From assembly GCA_947488615.1 (NCBI GenBank), contig CANKZU010000001.1, forward strand, positions 463,031-527,030: a DNA stretch of 64,000 nt. The letters run 5' to 3'. Below the pieces are notes generated by a model that saw nothing but the letters and a program-made list of their open reading frames with translations, was not told where the DNA came from and made no database searches. The position numbers and the translations under genes were made by a program. This DNA comes from an uncultured Aurantimonas sp. (GTDB taxonomy: Bacteria > Pseudomonadota > Alphaproteobacteria > Rhizobiales > Rhizobiaceae). Shown piece by piece: positions 6,983 through 51,268 of the stretch. The first letter of the stretch is position 1. Each line of letters begins with the position of its first letter.

Positions 6983-7528
6983 TTGGCCCGGGAGTTGACG
7001 ATCATGTTGGGAGTGCTCGCCGAGAAGCGGCGATCGGTCTCGAAATGGGCGAAGGAGTACTGGATACCGGTCGGCGTAACGCCCGCCTCCGGCAGCTTTT
7101 CGGCCGGCGATGAACTCCTGCGCGACCACACTATGACGCGCTATTTCATGGGCGTCCACAATCTCACATGCCACGCCGCGGACACCGAGGCCTATGTCCA
7201 TAACTTCAACAGCCAGACACCGGCCCTTTTCGTCATCCTGCGGCGCTCTGAAGACGATACCCATCCCTTGCCGTGGTTCGTCCATTCGGTGACGGCCTCG
7301 CCCTATCTGGCGCAGGACTACGACGACAGCGCCGAAGACATCGTCGAACGGGTCGCGATGCCGCCTGAAATTGCCGGGGCGATCATGGATTTCGTCGATC
7401 GCTATCACAAGGAGGAGGTGTTCAAGAAACGGCGGCGCGACAAGCTCGATACGGACGCGCACAAATTCGGCCAGGAGCCGATCTTCCTTCATCGCGAGCG
7501 ACCGGGTGGAGGCAAGTACGATGGTTGA
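6983..7528 (+). CDS. DUF3305-like protein
   Basis: 181 aa; W.P.GV / YFMGVHNLTCHAADTEAY.HN; adjacent to DUF3306-like ORF. Confidence 0.8.
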   Translation: MARELTIMLGVLAEKRRSVSKWAKEYWIPVGVTPASGSFSAGDELLRDHTMTRYFMGVHNLTCHAADTEAYVHNFNSQTPALFVILRRSEDDTHPLPWFVHSVTASPYLAQDYDDSAEDIVERVAMPPEIAGAIMDFVDRYHKEEVFKKRRRDKLDTDAHKFGQEPIFLHRERPGGGKYDG

Positions 7529-8213
7529 CGAGGCCGGCAAGAACGAAGGCTTCCTGTCGCGCTGGTCGCGGCGCAAGCGCGAGCCCGGCGAGGTCGAACC
7601 AGCGGTGGAGATCGCGCCAGACGATGCCGCGCCGGTCGTCGAAGCCGACACGCCCGATCCGGAAGCGGAGGAGAACCGCATCGCCGCCGAATCGATCGAC
7701 ATCGATTCGCTGGTACAGGGTGACGATTTTTCGCTCTTCCTGAAGCGCGGCGTTCCCGAGCTTTTGCGCAAACAGGCCTTGCGAAAGTTGTGGCGAACCA
7801 ATCCCGTTTTCGCCAATCTCGACGGCCTCAACGACTATGACGAGGATTTCCGCAATCCCGCGCACAATGCCTACAAGTCCCTCTGGCAGGTCGGGCGCGG
7901 CTTTCTGAGCGTCGAAGAGCAGGAGACCCAGCAGGCGACGGGCCGCATGTCGCGCGACGTCGTGGTTGACGAGCCGGTCGCCGGTGAAGCCGATCCCGCG
8001 GAGGAGGTGCGCGACGCCGAAGCTCCCACGATCGCTGGCGACGAAGAAGACCCGGCGGCGGCGTCAGTGGACGAAGAAGAATCGCCCGTCGAGATCGCCA
8101 TCGAAAGCGACGAGGCGGATGAACTCGCTTTCGCGCCTGGGCAATCGATCGAGCCGGACGAGGCCGAGCAGCCGCGACGGCGCGTGTCTATACGCAGCCG
8201 CCTGGAGGGTTAG
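7521..8213 (+). CDS. DUF3306-like protein
   Basis: MVDEAGKNEGFLSRWSRRK...FLKRGVPELLRKQALRKLWRTNPVFANLDGLNDYDEDF; acidic low-complexity C-terminus. Confidence 0.8.
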   Translation: MVDEAGKNEGFLSRWSRRKREPGEVEPAVEIAPDDAAPVVEADTPDPEAEENRIAAESIDIDSLVQGDDFSLFLKRGVPELLRKQALRKLWRTNPVFANLDGLNDYDEDFRNPAHNAYKSLWQVGRGFLSVEEQETQQATGRMSRDVVVDEPVAGEADPAEEVRDAEAPTIAGDEEDPAAASVDEEESPVEIAIESDEADELAFAPGQSIEPDEAEQPRRRVSIRSRLEG

Positions 8214-8248
8214 GACTTCAGGCCCCGCGACGCGGCCTGCCCTTTCGT

Positions 8249-8539
8249 TCAAACGTCCGGATCGGCCAGATGGGTGCGCAGCATTTCCTTGTAGATGCCC
8301 GCCATTTCCTCGACATACACCTCGTGGTCTGCGACATCGCGGACATTGCGCCCGACATGGGCGTTGTAGCGCGCCGCGGCGTAGAGAAAGGCCATGTGAA
8401 TATCCGTCGCGGGGACCTTGCGGTTGGCGCGATTGGCGACATCGATGAACCGGTCGGCCAGCCTGACGAACGCCTCCGGGCTGGACGTTTCCAGCGGATC
8501 GGTCGCTTGTTTTTGCGTGCCATTTCCCTGCGACGGCAT
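8249..8539 (-). CDS. DUF3144/DUF5076-like small protein
   Basis: FVRLADRFIDVANRANRKVPATDIHMAFLYAAARYNAHV; start chosen at MPSQGNGT. Confidence 0.65.
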   Translation of the reverse strand: MPSQGNGTQKQATDPLETSSPEAFVRLADRFIDVANRANRKVPATDIHMAFLYAAARYNAHVGRNVRDVADHEVYVEEMAGIYKEMLRTHLADPDV

Positions 8540-8661
8540 ATCCGTGTCTCCTCCTGGCGCGTCCCGGCGGTCGCCATTATCTCCAATCACGAAGCGCGAT
8601 TGGCCGCGCACCGCATTTGCCGTATGTGACGGTCCAGACTTCCATAACAGCGAGAGTTCAG

Positions 8662-9825
8662 TTGGCAATCAGCAAGGACAACATTCTGGAGCAGCTCAAG
8701 CGGGTCAAAGGACCCGACTTGAGCGGTAACATCGTCGATCTCGGCCTGGTCTCGGAAATTTTCCTCGCCGACGGCAAGGCGTTCTTTTCGCTGACGGTGC
8801 CGGCCGACCGGGCAGAGGAACTGGAACCCTTGCGCGCCGCCGCCGAAAAGGCGGCTATGAATGCCGAGGGCGTCGAGAAGGCAGTCGTCGCGCTGACCGC
8901 CGAGCGCAGCGGCTCCTCCGCGTCGGCCGTGCGCCCGGCACCGAGCGCCGAGCAGGCCGCCGCCGTGCCCCCGCCGATGGCGGCCCACGCCGCTCACGCC
9001 AGACCAACTCCGCCGGCAAAGGCCGGGGTTCCCGGCATCGGCGCAATCATAGCCGTCGCCTCCGGCAAGGGCGGCGTCGGCAAGTCGACCACGTCGGTCA
9101 ATCTGGCGCTCGGCCTTCAGGCGAACGGGTTGAAGGTCGGCATTCTGGATGCCGACATCTACGGTCCCTCCATGCCCCGTCTGCTGCATATTTCCGGCAG
9201 GCCGCAGACGGTGTCCGGACGCATCCTCAAGCCGATGGAGGGGTATGGCCTGAAGGTCATGTCGATGGGCTTCCTCGTCGACGAGGAAACCCCGATGATC
9301 TGGCGCGGGCCGATGGTCATTTCGGCGCTCACCCAGATGCTGCGCGAAGTCGAATGGGGCGAACTCGACGTGCTTGTCGTCGACATGCCGCCCGGCACCG
9401 GCGACGCCCAGCTGACCATGGCCCAGAACGTGCCGCTGGCCGGCGCGGTCATCGTCTCGACGCCGCAGGATCTCGCTCTGATCGACGCGCGCAAGGGCCT
9501 CGCCATGTTCCGCAAGGTCGATGTCCCGATCCTCGGCATCGTCGAGAATATGAGCTTTTTCATCTGCCCGAATTGCGGCAGCCAGCACGATATCTTCGGC
9601 CATGGCGGAGCGCGCAAGGAAGCCGATCGAATTGGCGCGCCGTTCCTCGGCGAAGTGCCGCTCGACATGGCGATCCGCGAGACGTCTGACGGCGGCACGC
9701 CGATCGTCGTTTCCGATCCGGACGGAGCGCATGCGAAAATCTATCGTGAGATCGCCGAGAAGGCATGGACCAGGGTGTTGGAGGAGCGCCAGATGAGCGG
9801 CGCACCGTCGATCGTCTTCGAGTAA
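8662..9825 (+). CDS. Mrp/NBP35 family Fe-S carrier P-loop ATPase
   Basis: VASGKGGVGKSTTSVNLALGL deviant Walker A; CPNCG; PPGTGDAQLT; TTG start at 8662 assumed (ORF extends to ATG 8617). Confidence 0.9.
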   Translation: MAISKDNILEQLKRVKGPDLSGNIVDLGLVSEIFLADGKAFFSLTVPADRAEELEPLRAAAEKAAMNAEGVEKAVVALTAERSGSSASAVRPAPSAEQAAAVPPPMAAHAAHARPTPPAKAGVPGIGAIIAVASGKGGVGKSTTSVNLALGLQANGLKVGILDADIYGPSMPRLLHISGRPQTVSGRILKPMEGYGLKVMSMGFLVDEETPMIWRGPMVISALTQMLREVEWGELDVLVVDMPPGTGDAQLTMAQNVPLAGAVIVSTPQDLALIDARKGLAMFRKVDVPILGIVENMSFFICPNCGSQHDIFGHGGARKEADRIGAPFLGEVPLDMAIRETSDGGTPIVVSDPDGAHAKIYREIAEKAWTRVLEERQMSGAPSIVFE

Positions 9826-9895
9826 GGCCTCCGCGCGGCGCCCGAGCCGGGCCGGGAGCGGGTGCCCCCTGTCCAACTGGTCCGGTTTTCGCGCC

Positions 9896-10144
9896 CTAGC
9901 CCGCCACCGCGGCTTCCTGGCGCTTTTCGATCAGGAACACGACGCGGTCTTTGCCCCGATCGGTGATCTCGACGCTATCGCCAGTCTCGCGGATCAGATT
10001 CGGGATATCGATCGTCGCCAGCGGATCGCTGCAATGGACTTCGAGGCGATCGCCCGCGGCGAGGCCGCCGAGCGCCTTGCGGGTTTTCAGGGCCGGCCAG
10101 GGGCATTTCAGACCGACGAGATCGAGTTTGGTTGTAACGGACAT
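9896..10144 (-). CDS. TusA-family sulfur carrier protein
   Basis: LDLVGLKCPWPALKTRKAL CPxP motif; start at MSVTTKLD. Confidence 0.85.
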   Translation of the reverse strand: MSVTTKLDLVGLKCPWPALKTRKALGGLAAGDRLEVHCSDPLATIDIPNLIRETGDSVEITDRGKDRVVFLIEKRQEAAVAG

Positions 10145-10189
10145 GGCGGGCAAGTTGGCCGAGCCGACCGACGGCGTCAACGATCTTTG

Positions 10190-11446
10190 TCAGTAGAGGC
10201 TCGCATAGGGAATGAATCCGACGATATCGCCCGGCTGAACCGCAGTCACGTCCTCGCCAAGTTCGACAAGCCCGTCCGTCTCGACCAGCGACGACAAGAG
10301 GCCAGCCCCCTCACGGGGAAACTTCACGGCTTCCACCGAACCATTTGCGGCGGGGCGTAGGCTGACACGCACATACTCGCGCCGGTCTTTCTTTTTCTTG
10401 TAGGAAAACCCCGCGCGAATCGGCGTCGCGGCGACCGTCTCCGGCGTCGCGCCGGCGAGCGCCAGGATCGACGGCCGCGCGATATGGGCAAAGGTGACGA
10501 AGCTCGCCACCGGGTTGCCGGGCAATCCGATGAACGGTGTCCCGCCGATGACGCCCATCGCCACCGGGCGGCCCGGCTTGATCGCGACGCGCCAGAACAC
10601 CAGCGATCCGGCGCTTTCCACGGCGCCCTTGACGAAATCCGCTTCGCCGGTCGACACGCCCCCGGATGTCAGAATGAGATCGTGAGCTGACGAGGCATTG
10701 CGCAGCGTCTCAGCGATTGCCGCGCGATTGTCCGCCAAAATGCCGAGATCGGTAATCTGGCAGCCGAGCCGCGCCAGCATCGCCATCAGCATGAATCGGT
10801 TGGAATCATAGAGCTGCGTCGACCCGCGCGGCGTCCCTGCCCGAACGATCTCATTGCCCGTCGAGAACACCGCGACCCGGACCCGCCGACTGACGGCGAG
10901 CCGGGTCTCGCCCAGTGCGGCGGCCAGGGCGATGTCCTGCGGCCGCAAGCGCCGGCCTGCCGTCAGGACGATCGCCCCCGTCTGCACGTCCTCGCCGGCT
11001 GGACGCATGTTGGCGCCCGCCTTGAGGCCGGCCGGAAGGACCACCGCGCCCGTATCGTCGACGCGCACATCCTCCTGCATGAAGACCGTATCGGCGCCAA
11101 CCGGCATCGGCGCACCAGTGAAGATGCGGACCGCCTGACCAGAGGCCACGGAAAGATTCGCGCCCGGACCCGCCTGCACCCGCCCGCTGACCTGGAAAGC
11201 CCGCTCGCCGGTTGCCGGAAGGTCGGCGCCACTGACGGCGTAGCCGTCGACAGCGGAATTGGCGAAGGGCGGCAGCGCCATCGACGCGATCAGGTCGCGG
11301 GCGAGAATTCGCCCGTCGGCGTCGCCGAGCGGAATCGATTCGGACTCCGCCAGCGGCTGCAACCGCGATGCGATAAGGGCAATCGTCTCGGCGACCGTCA
11401 TCATCGGTCCGCCGAATGCGAAGCAATCGTCCGAAAGTTGAGCCAT
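10190..11446 (-). CDS. moeA: Molybdopterin molybdotransferase
   Basis: FANSAVDGYAV, GDEIV-like FSTGNEIVRAGTP, SGGVSTGEADF, GLPGNPVASFVTF; start at MAQLSDDC. Confidence 0.92.
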   Translation of the reverse strand: MAQLSDDCFAFGGPMMTVAETIALIASRLQPLAESESIPLGDADGRILARDLIASMALPPFANSAVDGYAVSGADLPATGERAFQVSGRVQAGPGANLSVASGQAVRIFTGAPMPVGADTVFMQEDVRVDDTGAVVLPAGLKAGANMRPAGEDVQTGAIVLTAGRRLRPQDIALAAALGETRLAVSRRVRVAVFSTGNEIVRAGTPRGSTQLYDSNRFMLMAMLARLGCQITDLGILADNRAAIAETLRNASSAHDLILTSGGVSTGEADFVKGAVESAGSLVFWRVAIKPGRPVAMGVIGGTPFIGLPGNPVASFVTFAHIARPSILALAGATPETVAATPIRAGFSYKKKKDRREYVRVSLRPAANGSVEAVKFPREGAGLLSSLVETDGLVELGEDVTAVQPGDIVGFIPYASLY

Positions 11447-46237: not shown

Positions 46238-47073
46238 CCCTGGCGACCCTTTCCGACGTTCTGCAACCGGCCCTCAGGGAGGGTTACGCGGTCGGCGGTC
46301 TCGTCGTCCTTGGCTGGGAGGACGCCCGCGCCTATGTGGCGGCGGCCGAGGCGGAGAACGCGCCGGTAATCCTGCAAGCGGGTCCCGGCTGCCGGGCGCA
46401 CACCCCGCTTCGCGTCCTCGGCGCGATGTTCCGGACGCTGGCCGAAGGCGCCAGCGTTCCGGTCGTGGCACATCTCGACCACGGCTACACGGAAGACGAA
46501 TGCCGCGAGGCGATCGACTGCGGCTTCACCTCGGTGATGTTCGACGGCTCGCGCAAGCCGCTCGGCGAGAACATCGCCGCGACGGCCCGGATCGCCGAAA
46601 TGACCCATGCCGCCGGCGTCTCGATCGAGGGCGAGATCGGCTTCGTCGGTTATGCCGAAGGCGAGGCATCCGCCGGCACATCGTCCGAAGAGGCCGCCCG
46701 CTTCGCCGCCGAAAGCGGCGTCGACGCGATGGCGGTTTCCATCGGCAACGTCCATCTGCAGCAGGAAAAGGCGGCCGAGATCGACCTCGACACGCTGCGC
46801 GCCATCGAGGCCGTCACGAACCTGCCGCTCGTCATCCACGGCGGCTCGGGCGTTCCGGTCGCCACGCGCAGCCGGCTGGCGCGCGAATCGAAGATCTGCA
46901 AGTTCAATATCGGCACGGAACTGCGCATGGCCTTCGGACAGGCGTTGCGCGAGGCCATCGACCGCGACCCCAAACGCTTCGACCGTCTGGCGATCCTGAA
47001 GGAGACCGAAGCGCCGGTCCGCGACGCCGCCCGCGCCGTCATCCGGTCGCTTCGCGGCCCGTCGCCGGGATAG
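46234..47073 (+). CDS. Class II aldolase (fructose-bisphosphate/IolJ/GatY-like)
   Basis: VVAHLDHGYTEDECREAIDCGFTSVMFDGS; GEIGFVGYAEGE; LVIHGGSGVP; FNIGTELR. Confidence 0.88.
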   Translation: MTLATLSDVLQPALREGYAVGGLVVLGWEDARAYVAAAEAENAPVILQAGPGCRAHTPLRVLGAMFRTLAEGASVPVVAHLDHGYTEDECREAIDCGFTSVMFDGSRKPLGENIAATARIAEMTHAAGVSIEGEIGFVGYAEGEASAGTSSEEAARFAAESGVDAMAVSIGNVHLQQEKAAEIDLDTLRAIEAVTNLPLVIHGGSGVPVATRSRLARESKICKFNIGTELRMAFGQALREAIDRDPKRFDRLAILKETEAPVRDAARAVIRSLRGPSPG

Positions 47074-47175
47074 AGACGCACGACGAACGGGTTCCTATCG
47101 CCGCCGGTTTGTGTAACGTCCGGTCGGCTTTGCCTGGGGGGCGGAGCCGAGTCGCGTTGCAGGGGAGAGGCAGGC

Positions 47176-48222
47176 ATGACCGCAAGCGAGGACACCGCGC
47201 CGGAGGCCGCCGAAAAGCCCGCGCCAACCTTTGCGAACCGCCTGCGGGACTATGCGCCGGGGGTGCTGGTCGCGGCGACGGTCGCCGTCGCGGCGAAATT
47301 CCTGTCCGAGCATTACGGCGCGCCGGCCATGCTGATGGCGCTGCTCCTGGGCATCGCCCTGAACTTCCTCACCGAGGAAGGCAAATGCGCGGCCGGCATC
47401 AACTTCACCGCCAGGACGGTCCTGCGCGTCGGCGTCGCGCTCCTGGGCGTGCGCATCTCCGTCGCCCTGTTGATCGGCCTCGGCCCCGGCCTGATCGCGC
47501 TGCTCGTCGCCGGCGTCGTCGCCACCATCCTGTTCGGCTTTGCCGCGGCGAAGCTGCTCGGTCGCGGCTGGCGGCTGGCGCTCCTGACCGGCGGATCGGT
47601 GGCGATCTGCGGCGCCTCGGCGGCGATGGCTATCGCCGCCGTCCTGCCGAAGAACCAGTACTCCGAGCGCAACCTGATCTTCACCGTGCTCAGCGTCACC
47701 GTGCTCAGCACCCTGGCGATGATCGTCTATCCGCTGCTGATCCCGGTCTTCGGGCTGAAGGACCAGGCGATCGGCGTGTTTCTCGGCGGCACCATCCACG
47801 ACGTCGCCCAGGTCGTCGGCGCCGGCTTTTCGGTCTCCGACGCGGCCGGCGAGACCGCCACGCTGGTCAAGCTGATCCGCGTCACCATGCTGGCGCCGGT
47901 GGTGCTGGTGTTCACGCTGGTGTTCCGCGCCACCCACAAGAGCGAGGCCGAGGCCGGCAAGCGGCCGCCGCTGATCCCCGGCTTCGTGCTCGGCTTTCTG
48001 GCGCTGGCAGCGCTCAATTCCTTCGGCCTGATCCCCAAGCAAGCCGCCGACATCACCGCCGACGTCTCCGGCTGGGCGCTCCTGTTCGGCATCGCCGCCG
48101 TCGGCATGAAGACCGCGCTGAAGAGCATCCTTTCCGTCGGCCGCGAGGCCGTCCTCCTCGTCGTCGCCGAGACCGTCTTCCTCGCCGCCTTCATCCTCAT
48201 CGGAATTGCATATCTGAACTAA
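47176..48222 (+). CDS. YeiH/UPF0324 family putative sulfate exporter
   Basis: Polytopic; LLGIALNFLTEEGKCAAGINFTARTVLRVGVALLGVRIS; GGSVAICGASAAMAIAAVLP. Confidence 0.88.
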   Translation: MTASEDTAPEAAEKPAPTFANRLRDYAPGVLVAATVAVAAKFLSEHYGAPAMLMALLLGIALNFLTEEGKCAAGINFTARTVLRVGVALLGVRISVALLIGLGPGLIALLVAGVVATILFGFAAAKLLGRGWRLALLTGGSVAICGASAAMAIAAVLPKNQYSERNLIFTVLSVTVLSTLAMIVYPLLIPVFGLKDQAIGVFLGGTIHDVAQVVGAGFSVSDAAGETATLVKLIRVTMLAPVVLVFTLVFRATHKSEAEAGKRPPLIPGFVLGFLALAALNSFGLIPKQAADITADVSGWALLFGIAAVGMKTALKSILSVGREAVLLVVAETVFLAAFILIGIAYLN

Positions 48223-48317
48223 CGGCGACGGGCTCCTTTTCCAGCAAGTACTGCCTTTTCCAGAACGATTCACCCCCACCGTCAGCAAGGCGGTTTCGTT
48301 TCCGGAAGGACCAAACG

Positions 48318-48698
48318 ATGAGCCCTTTGACCGACATTCGCCTGCCGATCCACAACGCCCTCATCTACGTGCGGAACACCGGGGACTGGGATGTGCCGGC
48401 GATCGATGGCATCGGACATCTGTGGACGAGCAAGACCTGCGTCGCGGTCGGATGCCTGCCGGACATCGACGGCGCGACACGGATCATCATCGGCGACGTC
48501 ATCGACGTTCCGCGAACCGAGCACGAAACCTTCGATAGGCGGATTGAGACGCCGTCGAAATCCGTGACCGTCGAATCTGTCTATGATCATGACCTTGCGG
48601 TCGTCACGACAGGGACATCGTCAACGCGCGTTCGGATATGGACAGACGGAACGTCGCTTTCCTCGATCATTATCGTCGGCGTGCATCGACATGACTGA
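48318..48698 (+). CDS. Small protein of unknown family, tandem paralogue 1 of 4
   Basis: 126 aa, MSPLTDIRLPIHNALIYVRNTGDWDVPAIDGIGHLWTSKTCVAVGC...VRIWTDG; lies in frame inside the long open frame 46500-48698. Confidence 0.8.
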   Translation: MSPLTDIRLPIHNALIYVRNTGDWDVPAIDGIGHLWTSKTCVAVGCLPDIDGATRIIIGDVIDVPRTEHETFDRRIETPSKSVTVESVYDHDLAVVTTGTSSTRVRIWTDGTSLSSIIIVGVHRHD

Positions 48699-49071
48699 GA
48701 TCATTCACTGGACCGCCCGTCATCCCATTCAGAACTCCCTGATCTTCATCCACGATGACGGGGATTATGATTTTCCCGAGATCGATGGAATTGGGGCCCA
48801 TTGGGCGACGCCGACATGCGTCGCGGTCAGTTGCAGCCCCGGCTGTGACGCGGACACGATCATCGACGTCGGCGATCCTTCCGATGTCCGGCAGTCCGAC
48901 CAGCAAATCTTCGACGGCTGGCTGAACACGCCCTCAAGACGGATCAAGCTCGACGCCGTCCATATCGAGACGATCGGCGAACTGGCCGTTCCCTGCACCA
49001 TGACTCGCCTGTGGATCTGGACGGACGGCCATCAGGATAGCGAATTCGTGTCGATCGGCGTCAGCCAATGA
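48691..49071 (+). CDS. Small protein of unknown family, tandem paralogue 2 of 4
   Basis: 126 aa, MTEIIHWTARHPIQNSLIFIHDDGDYDFPEIDGIGAHWATPTCVAVSC...LWIWTDGHQDSEFVSIGVSQ; overlaps paralogue 1 by 8 nt. Confidence 0.82.
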   Translation: MTEIIHWTARHPIQNSLIFIHDDGDYDFPEIDGIGAHWATPTCVAVSCSPGCDADTIIDVGDPSDVRQSDQQIFDGWLNTPSRRIKLDAVHIETIGELAVPCTMTRLWIWTDGHQDSEFVSIGVSQ

Positions 49072-49119
49072 GGCACGATAGAGCCTCCACCCTTGTCTGC
49101 ATCAGCGATAGCCGACCCG

Positions 49120-49500
49120 ATGAGCAATCGATTCTTCCGCCACATCCTCGCGAACGGCCTCATCTTCATTCACGACGGCGGCGAGTGGACAGCCCCGGAC
49201 GTGGACGGGATCGGTACATATTGGCGCAGCGACACGTGCGTCATCGTGAGTTGTCTGCCGCATTCCGAAGGCGCGACTTCCATCGAGGTCGGGGAGAGCG
49301 ACGAGGTCAGGCATTCGCCTCATAAAATCTTTGACGATTGGCTGGACACGCCCAGCGGAAAGATCAGGATCGAGGGTGTTGAGATCGACGAGATCACGTC
49401 ATTTGCCGTATCTGCGGCGCGAACCCGACTGACGATTTGGACAGACGGACAGAAATGCTCCGAATTCGTGTCGATCGGCGTCAGCCTCAGACAGGAATAG
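49120..49500 (+). CDS. Small protein of unknown family, tandem paralogue 3 of 4
   Basis: MSNRFFRHILANGLIFIHDGGEWTAPDVDGIGTYWRSDTCVIVSC...LTIWTDGQKCSEFVSIGVSLRQE; alternative TTG start 49093. Confidence 0.82.
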   Translation: MSNRFFRHILANGLIFIHDGGEWTAPDVDGIGTYWRSDTCVIVSCLPHSEGATSIEVGESDEVRHSPHKIFDDWLDTPSGKIRIEGVEIDEITSFAVSAARTRLTIWTDGQKCSEFVSIGVSLRQE

Positions 49501-49541
49501 CGAACGGGAACGATATCGGCACCGCAGGAAGGAGGGCGGCA

Positions 49542-49919
49542 TTGGCGGATTCCATTCAACTCGCTCCTCCAAACTCCCTCTTCTTTCTGTCGGACATAGA
49601 GGATGACGGGATAGGGCCGGAATTCATCCCGGATCGCCTGATCCTGTCGACCCCATCCTGCATCTCGATCGGATGTCTCGCCTTTGTCGACGGCAAGACG
49701 ACGTTGACGCTGGCGGCATCGACGGAACTCGATCTGAAGCTGCCGCCAGTGTTCACCGGCTTCCTGAAAACACCCAATCGTGGTGTGCGTATCTCGACGA
49801 TCGCGCATCCCTCGCTGCTGAGACTGACAACGGGCACACTGTCGAGCAAAGTCCGAATCTGGGTCAATCGGCCCATCGAGCCGGACCGCATTCTCATCGG
49901 AATCGGAGGGGCTTCCTGA
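49542..49919 (+). CDS. Small protein of unknown family, tandem paralogue 4 of 4 (divergent)
   Basis: TTG start at 49542 preceded by AGGAAGGAGGG; MADSIQLAPPNSLFFLSDIEDDGIGPEFIPDRLILSTPSCISIGC...KVRIWVNRP. Confidence 0.7.
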   Translation: MADSIQLAPPNSLFFLSDIEDDGIGPEFIPDRLILSTPSCISIGCLAFVDGKTTLTLAASTELDLKLPPVFTGFLKTPNRGVRISTIAHPSLLRLTTGTLSSKVRIWVNRPIEPDRILIGIGGAS

Positions 49920-49948
49920 GAAATGCTCCCCCGCGTGACCCGGCCGCC

Positions 49949-51268
49949 TTACGCCCCGCTCTCCGGCACGAATGCCTGCTCCATCTCGCGGCGCAGATCG
50001 TAGGCCCTGGAGCCGGTGGGCGCCGCGATGTCGGCGTAGGTCACCGGCGAGCCCGCTTCGACCGGCCGGGTCAGCGTCACGCGATGGGCGAGGCCAATCG
50101 GCAGCGCGCCGTTCGCCAGGCTCCGGGCCGCCGGTATGGCCTTGCCATAGACCGTGTAGCCGCCTTCCCCGTCGAGAACCTCGCCGGCGCGAAGGTCGCG
50201 CTTGGCGATCGCCACCGCGTCGCCGCGCCAGGTTTCCGACACGCCGGTCGCCTCGCCGCGCAGCGCCGCGTTGAGCACCGAGATCGACAGTTCCAGCCCG
50301 ATCAGATGAAACGGCTTGTACATCGCGGCATAGCGGCCGGTGGCGTCGGTCGGCAGCCCATACTGCTTGAAACAGGCAGCGGCGTAGTCGTTCGGCGCTT
50401 TCAGGACGACATAGACGCCCCAGCGCAGATCCCGATAGACCGGCCGGCCGTCCCGCTCCAGCGAGGAGACGACCTCGACCATGCCGTCGCGGTCGAGCTG
50501 CCCGCCGACATCGCGGGGACGCAGGATGTGGGCGAGATCATCGACGCCGCAGGGCGGAAATGTCAGCCCGTCTTGAGGCACCGACAGGTCGCAGGCATTG
50601 GCGATCGCGGCCATCTCGATCGCCGACTTGGTACCGTCGAGAAAGGAGTTGAACATTTGCGGGTTCATGCCGGCCGCTGCCGCCTCCTCCGGCGACAGAC
50701 CATAATGGGTCCAGACGTCGTCGGGCGTCACCTGGTGATAGGCCGGCAGATATTTCGTGCCCTTGCCGGCCGCCGCGATAATGAAGCCGGCCGACCGTCC
50801 CCAGTCGACCATCTCGGCGACCAGCGCCGGCTGGTCGCCATAGGCCATGGAATAGACCACACCGGCCTCGCGGGCTCGCCGGGCCAGAAGCGGGCCGCAG
50901 AGAACGTCCGTCTCGACATTGACCATGACCAGATGCTTGCCCGCGGCGATTGACGCCAGCGCGTGGGTAACGCCGGCCTCCGGCATCCCGGTCGCCTCGA
51001 TCACGACCTCGACGCCCTCGGCCGAACAGGCTTCGACGCCGGATTCGACAAACCGCGTTTTGCCGATCCGCGCCGCGTCCCAGCCCACGTTCCGGCAGGT
51101 CTGGCGCGCCCTGTCGGTGTCGAGGTCGGCGATGACCGCGACCACGAGGCCCGGTATCGTCGGCACCTGCGACAGGAACATCGAGCCGAACTTGCCGGCG
51201 CCGATCAGCGCGACCGTGACCGGCCGGCCATCCTCACGGCGACGGCGAAGCAGATATTGCAGATTCAA
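49949..51268 (-). CDS. NAD(P)-binding oxidoreductase with C-terminal SAF domain (homoserine-dehydrogenase-like/DRL-like)
   Basis: VALIGAGKFGSMFLSQVPTIPGLVVAVIADLD; VVIEATGMPEAGV; C-terminal SAF-like LRAGEVLDGEGGYTVYGKA; exact start uncertain (ORF to 51310). Confidence 0.75.
   Translation of the reverse strand: MNLQYLLRRRREDGRPVTVALIGAGKFGSMFLSQVPTIPGLVVAVIADLDTDRARQTCRNVGWDAARIGKTRFVESGVEACSAEGVEVVIEATGMPEAGVTHALASIAAGKHLVMVNVETDVLCGPLLARRAREAGVVYSMAYGDQPALVAEMVDWGRSAGFIIAAAGKGTKYLPAYHQVTPDDVWTHYGLSPEEAAAAGMNPQMFNSFLDGTKSAIEMAAIANACDLSVPQDGLTFPPCGVDDLAHILRPRDVGGQLDRDGMVEVVSSLERDGRPVYRDLRWGVYVVLKAPNDYAAACFKQYGLPTDATGRYAAMYKPFHLIGLELSISVLNAALRGEATGVSETWRGDAVAIAKRDLRAGEVLDGEGGYTVYGKAIPAARSLANGALPIGLAHRVTLTRPVEAGSPVTYADIAAPTGSRAYDLRREMEQAFVPESGA

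What the first reader, a model, noticed from the sequence alone, without database searches (positions are those of the whole stretch)
48318..49919. Four tandem paralogues of a small protein family with no family I can name
Seen in the sequence: four consecutive same-strand ORFs of about 125 aa share one motif pattern, N-x-L-(I/F)-(Y/F)-(V/I/L)..., G-(D/E)-(W/Y)..P.(I/V)DGIG..W, (T/S)C(V/I).(V/I).C, a TP...(V/I) block, and a C-terminal (R/T)(V/L).IWTDG...(V/I).IGV. Copies 1-3 are clearly related; copy 4 keeps the N.L, C...GC, TP and IW blocks but loses DGIG and TDG. Inference: tandem amplification then divergence of compact, probably beta-rich, cytosolic proteins (no signal peptide or TM). That pattern is typical of immunity genes, anti-defence factors or specificity modules and not of housekeeping enzymes. 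This is my best candidate for an undescribed system.
Basis: partly seen in the sequence, partly recalled or inferred. Interest (0 to 1): 0.82.

Follow-up and report, generated by a model that had tools for sequence, protein, structure and literature searches.

The report
Orphan immunity array, HNH toxin lost
Four small side-by-side genes in an Aurantimonas-type bacterium most likely make antidote proteins against a DNA-cutting toxin that a related species still carries next to them and that has been deleted here except for its last 12 codons.

Summary
In detail: four tandem same-strand ORFs (c1-c4) encode one small family that Pfam, NCBIfam, PHROGs and PADLOC do not name. They are best explained as an orphan immunity array. 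In related genomes and viral contigs the family sits directly downstream of an HNH-type nuclease whose motifs (CxxC, DH, CxxC, Q) match the published NGO1392-like polymorphic toxin. In the genome collection all 38 nucleases found are followed by one of three immunity families: this one (17), Imm33-like (11) or Imm21 (10). A. marianensis keeps an intact toxin upstream of the same array; the window keeps only its last 12 codons and stop. A confident AlphaFold2 model of c2 is all-beta and its best PDB match is ComJ, a protein inhibitor of a DNase. c1-c3 form one clade (local amplification); c4 is a separately acquired member whose decayed toxin survives in another species of the genus. Polyimmunity arrays are a known kind of locus; the immunity family and its delivery context appear new. 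The toxins share a QPRxPAGxPDGGQWT linker, and many are fused to or beside portal genes of phages and gene transfer agents. Neutralisation and delivery are inferred, not tested.

The parts
48283..48321 (+). 3' remnant of the deleted HNH nuclease toxin gene: last 12 codons QQGGFVSGRTKR plus TGA; the stop overlaps the c1 start by ATGA
   Evidence: Window 47001-48215 and 48279-50200 align at about 95% to A. marina (G002) 7447-8660 and 9463-11385, leaving about 800 bp missing in the window; remnant translation; intact gene in G005
48318..48698 (+). c1, predicted immunity protein, 126 aa; first gene after the toxin slot
   Evidence: dN/dS about 0.3 against two relatives
48691..49071 (+). c2, predicted immunity protein, 126 aa; starts 8 bp inside c1
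   Evidence: AlphaFold2 pLDDT 89.1; ComJ-like fold
49120..49500 (+). c3, predicted immunity protein, 126 aa; closest to c2 (53%)
   Evidence: the orthologue in G005 is frameshifted
49542..49919 (+). c4, divergent predicted immunity protein, 125 aa, TTG start behind GGAGG; separate lineage
   Evidence: in G007 its orthologue (frameshifted there) follows a degenerate copy of the nuclease

Best explanation
c1-c4 are cytosolic immunity proteins of one unnamed family with a ComJ-like beta fold. Each most likely binds and blocks a variant of an HNH (beta-beta-alpha metal) DNase toxin of the NGO1392-like class. Upstream of c1 there was once a toxin gene (242 residues in A. marianensis: short N-terminal part, linker YDPNQPRVPAGNPDGGQWT, C-terminal HNH domain), coupled to c1 by an ATGA overlap. 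In the window's lineage the toxin gene was deleted almost completely and the antidotes stayed. c1-c3 arose by local duplication and divergence; c4 is the antidote of an older, now lost toxin at the same site. The array would protect against toxins of kin or of phage/GTA particles that carry related HNH domains. Shown: homology, genomic linkage, toxin scar, predicted fold, coding constraint. Inferred: nuclease activity, physical binding, protection, and which copy matches which toxin.
For: (1) Linkage found, then tested on new genomes. In the first nine genomes with the family, an intact, broken or fragmentary nuclease lies next to it in seven, and the window carries a scar. Of 18 further genomes found with the family profile alone, 11 have the nuclease or its remnant directly upstream and one has it nearby. 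(2) The reverse search with the nuclease: all 38 complete nucleases in the genome collection are followed by this family (17), Imm33-like (11) or Imm21 (10), with 17 of the 21 Imm21/Imm33-like cases confirmed by Pfam itself; 18 of 22 in viral contigs are followed by this family. (3) Specificity: among proteins with the same linker, the family flanks 8 of 9 with the HNH domain and 0 of 20 with other C-termini (Fisher p 2e-6). (4) Fold: c2 model pLDDT 89.1, pTM 0.84; best PDB match ComJ 4mqd, E 2.5e-5, probability 1.00, TM 0.68. (5) Toxin scar and array comparison of three species. (6) The partner's motifs match the published NGO1392-like class and two of its published immunity partners, Imm21 and Imm33. 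(7) dN/dS 0.23-0.48 for c1-c3.
Against: Nothing was tested at the bench. The nuclease model had no significant PDB match and no Pfam or NCBIfam family; HNH identity rests on motifs, a beta-beta-alpha pattern in the model and a weak PHROG match (E 0.0026). G001, G309, G328 and G365 carry the family without a detectable toxin, and in G124, G133 and G127 the nearby toxin-like gene has another C-terminus or is RHS. Some orthologues are frameshifted (c3 in G005, c4 in G007), so individual copies are dispensable. The ComJ match is at 11% identity, and ComJ inhibits a different nuclease class.
Confidence: 0.87

Rival explanations
1. The copies are decaying leftovers with no present function: after toxin loss the antidotes simply await deletion.
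For: The toxin is gone here; G002's toxin is frame-broken; c3 in G005 and c4 in G007 are frameshifted; dN/dS of c4 reaches 0.5-0.7; no sigma-70-like promoter was found upstream.
Against: All four frames are open in the window; c1-c3 dN/dS 0.23-0.48 against two species; the four-gene order is kept in three species. Relaxed constraint is also usual for real immunity genes (general knowledge).
Confidence: 0.25
2. They are physiological nuclease regulators like B. subtilis ComJ, acting on a DNA-uptake or housekeeping nuclease.
For: ComJ-like fold.
Against: Variable copy number, low G+C (58% against 68-69% in the flanks), sporadic occurrence (20 of 397 genomes of the order), and linkage to HNH domains at the C-terminus of RHS and portal-linked toxins.
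Confidence: 0.04
3. They are phage or GTA-derived anti-defence factors that block host restriction or defence nucleases.
For: Many homologues lie between terminase and portal genes of phage/GTA-like clusters.
Against: The immediately upstream gene is itself a nuclease with a toxin architecture; the family also follows RHS toxins outside phages (L121, L124, L109); no PADLOC match.
Confidence: 0.04
4. The nuclease-antidote pair is an addiction (toxin-antitoxin) module of phages or GTAs rather than a delivered toxin; the array would then be leftover antitoxins.
For: ATGA or TAATG overlaps in about half of the pairs; the toxin in Aurantimonas is short and lacks a known secretion domain.
Against: The same nuclease is the C-terminal tip of RHS proteins and is fused in frame to portal proteins, and linker proteins carry many different toxin ends, which is the polymorphic-toxin pattern.
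Confidence: 0.12

Closest known systems
Homogeneous polyimmunity loci and displaced immunity arrays (PMC3482391; V. cholerae T6SS arrays, PMC5361080; S. aureus esaG strings, PMC9484751)
   Same: Tandem related immunity genes downstream of one toxin slot, older antidotes pushed to the back, toxin replaced or lost.
   Different: Different immunity family; no T6SS or T7SS genes noticed at this site; here c1-c3 look locally amplified, whereas the V. cholerae arrays are read as successive acquisitions.
ComJ / Imm-ComJ (4mqd; PMC3482391)
   Same: Predicted all-beta fold and a role as protein inhibitor of a nuclease encoded upstream.
   Different: No sequence-profile match; partner is an HNH CxxC-DH-CxxC-Q domain, not the ComI/NucA competence nuclease.
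NGO1392-like (Tox-SuFu-Nuc) HNH toxins (PMC3482391)
   Same: Partner nuclease has CxxC, DH, CxxC, Q and, in other taxa, the published partners Imm21 and Imm33.
   Different: Here paired with an unnamed immunity family and mounted on a QPRxPAGxPDGGQWT linker or a portal protein.
MuF polymorphic toxins of temperate phages (PMC5576092; Bxa, PMC11699363)
   Same: Toxin domains tied to the portal/terminase region of tailed phages with a small immunity ORF behind.
   Different: No MuF domain detected; the carrier is a portal C-terminus or a short linker protein, often in gene-transfer-agent-like clusters.
Tde5-Tdi5a/b (PMC13392607)
   Same: Beta-beta-alpha metal DNase toxin neutralised by structurally unrelated immunity proteins.
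   Different: T6SS effector; its sequences were not compared with this family here.

Membership tests
Polymorphic-toxin immunity protein | Small protein encoded directly downstream of a toxin domain | tested here: met
   17 of 38 genome and 18 of 22 viral nucleases followed by the family; the other 21 genome cases have Imm21 or Imm33-like in the same slot
Polymorphic-toxin immunity protein | Tracks one toxin domain rather than the carrier | tested here: met
   8/9 HNH-type against 0/20 other linker proteins
Polymorphic-toxin immunity protein | Neutralises the toxin | not testable with these tools
   needs co-expression and binding assays
Homogeneous polyimmunity locus | Tandem paralogous immunity genes, usually without an associated toxin gene | tested here: met
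   four copies; toxin reduced to 12 codons
ComJ / Imm-ComJ | ComJ fold | tested here: met
   Foldseek E 2.5e-5, probability 1.00, TM 0.68, on a predicted model
ComJ / Imm-ComJ | ComJ sequence family | tested here: not met
   no ComJ match for c1-c4 in Pfam at E<=1; no PDB sequence match for profile A5
ComJ / Imm-ComJ | Partner is a ComI/NucA nuclease | tested here: not met
   partner is CxxC-DH-CxxC-Q
Imm21 | Sequence homology to PF15589 | tested here: not met
   no Pfam match for c1-c4; profile comparison probability 0.4%
NGO1392-like HNH toxin (the partner) | CxxC, DH, CxxC, Q | tested here: met
   alignment of 42 sequences against Table 2 of PMC3482391
NGO1392-like HNH toxin (the partner) | Match to a named sequence profile | tested here: not met
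   no toxin or HNH family in Pfam or NCBIfam; weak PHROG 960 HNH, E 0.0026
NGO1392-like HNH toxin (the partner) | DNase activity | not testable with these tools
   needs purified protein
MuF toxins | MuF domain | tested here: not met
   Pfam scan of the A. marianensis toxin and of a portal-toxin fusion shows no MuF; the fusion shows Phage_portal

The most novel reading that the evidence does not exclude
The array is the residue of an unrecognised class of polymorphic toxins. Interchangeable toxin domains sit behind a conserved [YF][DN]P[ND]QPRxPAGxP[DE]GGQWT linker, are fused to or inserted beside the portal gene of HK97-type phages and gene transfer agents of Hyphomicrobiales, and may be carried in or with the particle head and injected with its DNA. 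The array would then be immunity against kin phage or GTA particles.
Probability: 0.4. Interest if true: 0.78.

Novelty: new member of a known kind. Interest (0 to 1): 0.55.

Why it matters
It gives a role and a predicted fold to an unnamed protein family found across Hyphomicrobiales and their viruses. It adds a third, apparently unrelated immunity family seen behind one HNH toxin domain, and it puts a ComJ-like nuclease inhibitor in bacterial or phage conflict. It also points to phage and GTA portal proteins as carriers of exchangeable toxin domains. A domesticated DNA-delivery particle that also carries a DNase with a matching antidote would be directly testable.

Tried and rejected
Two alignment-based collection scans failed for lack of conserved stretches; a closer five-sequence nuclease set worked. 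The first nuclease profile contained one wrong-frame row (G002); it was rebuilt without it, and the later counts use the rebuilt profile. Imm21 as a distant homologue was rejected. Potato-inhibitor similarity of c1 (E 0.016) was rejected as below cut-off and confined to one copy. The phage record collection had no match and the plasmid collection one weak partial match. BFVD had no significant structural match, and the nuclease model had no PDB match. A single origin of all four copies by duplication is disfavoured (AU p 0.028). No further toxin remnant was detected between the copies. No paper in the library prints the string QPRVPAG, and none was found that ties gene transfer agents to polymorphic toxins in this way; subscription papers are not held, so absence there is weak evidence.

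Full report
OBSERVATION. The window holds four + strand ORFs in a row: c1 48318-48698, c2 48691-49071, c3 49120-49500 and c4 49542-49919. Pairwise blastp gives E 1e-42 to 2e-29 among c1-c3, and 3e-14 for c4 against c1. The own genome has no other copy. No family is named by Pfam, NCBIfam, PHROGs or PADLOC. The array has 58% G+C against 68-69% in the flanking genes and 65% in the window, which suggests imported DNA. The flanks look like ordinary metabolism: a YeiH-type membrane protein upstream and an oxidoreductase on the other strand downstream (named by me from the sequence, not searched).

LINK TO A TOXIN. Searching 100 related genomes gave eight others with the family. Reading their neighbourhoods showed a small protein ending in a zinc-type HNH pattern directly upstream in several. 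This was then tested on new data. A profile of the family found 20 genomes among 397 of the order. Of the 18 not used before, 11 have the nuclease or its remnant directly upstream; one (G353) has it on the far side 0.8 kb away; G124 and G133 have a linker-bearing toxin-like protein with another C-terminus nearby; G127 has an RHS protein; and G309, G328 and G365 show none.

REVERSE TEST. A nuclease query found 37 loci in bacterial genomes, from Hyphomicrobiales to Streptomyces, Xanthomonas and Chryseobacterium, and 21 in viral contigs. It is the C-terminal end of RHS proteins in many of the distant genomes and of portal proteins in several phage/GTA-like loci. The gene that follows is this family in 17 genome cases, Imm33-like in 11 and Imm21 in 10, which is all 38 nucleases counted. 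In viral contigs it is this family in 18 of 22; of the four others, two are cut by the contig end, one reads nuclease and antidote in one frame, and one is divergent. The Imm21 and Imm33-like profiles used for that count were built from such genes, so Pfam was run as an independent check; it agreed for all 17 tested (8 Imm21, 9 Imm33-like). The unnamed family thus occupies a slot that is otherwise held by annotated immunity proteins.

SPECIFICITY. The toxins in Hyphomicrobiales share a linker, QPRxPAGxx[DE]GGQW. Its coding pattern occurs in 23 of 297 genomes, against none for the reversed control. Behind it lie varied ends, including deaminase-like, HNH-like of another type and DIKTG-bearing sequences (these labels are my reading of motifs, except a sub-threshold MafB19 deaminase match for L088). 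The window family flanks 8 of 9 linker proteins with this HNH domain and 0 of 20 with other ends (Fisher p 2e-6; loci not phylogenetically independent, flanks of 1.5 kb).

THE SCAR. Window 47001-48215 and 48279-50200 align at about 95% to A. marina (G002, record NZ_JADDXW010000001), but the 800 bp between them in G002 are missing from the window (names). What remains is CAGCAAGGC...AAACGATGA at 48283-48321, which reads QQGGFVSGRTKR-stop, the end of the toxin, with the c1 ATG overlapping the stop. A. marianensis (G005, NZ_JALHBS010000018) keeps an intact 242-residue toxin; in G002 the frame is broken. In G007 the same site has no c1-c3 but a degenerate nuclease end followed by c4. c4 is therefore likely the antidote of an older toxin, and c1-c3 belong to a later one.

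TREE AND CONSTRAINT. c1-c3 of three species form one clade (99/92), while c4 groups elsewhere. Forcing all copies into one clade costs 42.8 log units, AU p 0.028, on only 122 columns. dN/dS is 0.23-0.48 for c1-c3 and 0.39-0.72 for c4, against about 0.1 in the flanks: coding constraint, weaker than for the neighbouring genes. c3 in G005 and c4 in G007 are frameshifted, so copies do decay.

STRUCTURE. AlphaFold2 on a 40-sequence alignment gives c2 an all-beta model, pLDDT 89.1, pTM 0.84. Foldseek finds ComJ, the protein inhibitor of the B. subtilis NucA DNase, as the best PDB match (E 2.5e-5, probability 1.00, TM 0.68, 11% identity), then CgnJ of crocagin synthesis. The nuclease model (pLDDT 93.8) shows strand-strand-helix around the DH and second CxxC but has no significant PDB match. 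PMC3482391 lists NGO1392-like toxins as HNH/EndoVII fold with CxxC, DH, CxxC, Q and immunity partners including Imm21 and Imm33, which agrees with the alignment and neighbours seen here. The same paper reports ComJ homologues as immunity proteins of ComI-type toxins.

MECHANISM. Inferred: the toxin's HNH domain cuts DNA in the target cell; each antidote binds it and blocks cleavage; the array keeps antidotes to past or foreign variants. Such arrays are known from V. cholerae T6SS clusters (PMC5361080) and from S. aureus esaG strings (PMC9484751). Delivery is unsettled. In Nitratireductor the portal-toxin ORF lies with Terminase_6, DUF6107 and GTA-gp10; in L142/L143 and Mesorhizobium soli portal and nuclease are one ORF; and in several genomes the pair sits between terminase and portal. 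This resembles MuF toxins of temperate phages (PMC5576092), but no MuF domain was detected. The Aurantimonas toxin itself is short and not beside portal genes.

VERDICT. The finding is real and useful: a new immunity family in a known kind of locus. The most novel part, portal- and GTA-linked polymorphic toxins, lies outside the window and needs particle experiments.

Noticed in passing
L142 4459-6468, L143 4471-6468, L101 4498-6456: Phage/GTA-type portal protein and HNH toxin domain in one uninterrupted ORF, followed by the immunity family.
   Followed up: partly
L099 3244-6818 and 11306-11785: Portal-toxin ORF and immunity gene inside a cluster with Terminase_6, DUF6107 and GTA-gp10 (Nitratireductor arenosus): a gene-transfer-agent-like cluster carrying a toxin pair.
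   Followed up: partly
L155-L184, for example L162, L165, L166, L171, L173: QPRxPAGxPDGGQWT linker proteins with several unrelated C-terminal ends and no match to the window family beside them; their own immunity genes were not identified.
   Followed up: partly
L160 1474-2916: A portal protein that ends in the linker motif with no toxin domain behind it, perhaps an empty acceptor.
   Followed up: no
L144 4400-5338: Nuclease and immunity domain read in one continuous frame (313 aa), either a true fusion or a lost stop.
   Followed up: no
L032 7872-8927: G079's nuclease gene between terminase and portal has one in-frame TGA, so it is probably inactive while two immunity genes behind it are open.
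   Followed up: no
L082 7240-7626 and 9015-10406: In G127 the family lies downstream of an RHS-type protein with another small ORF between.
   Followed up: no
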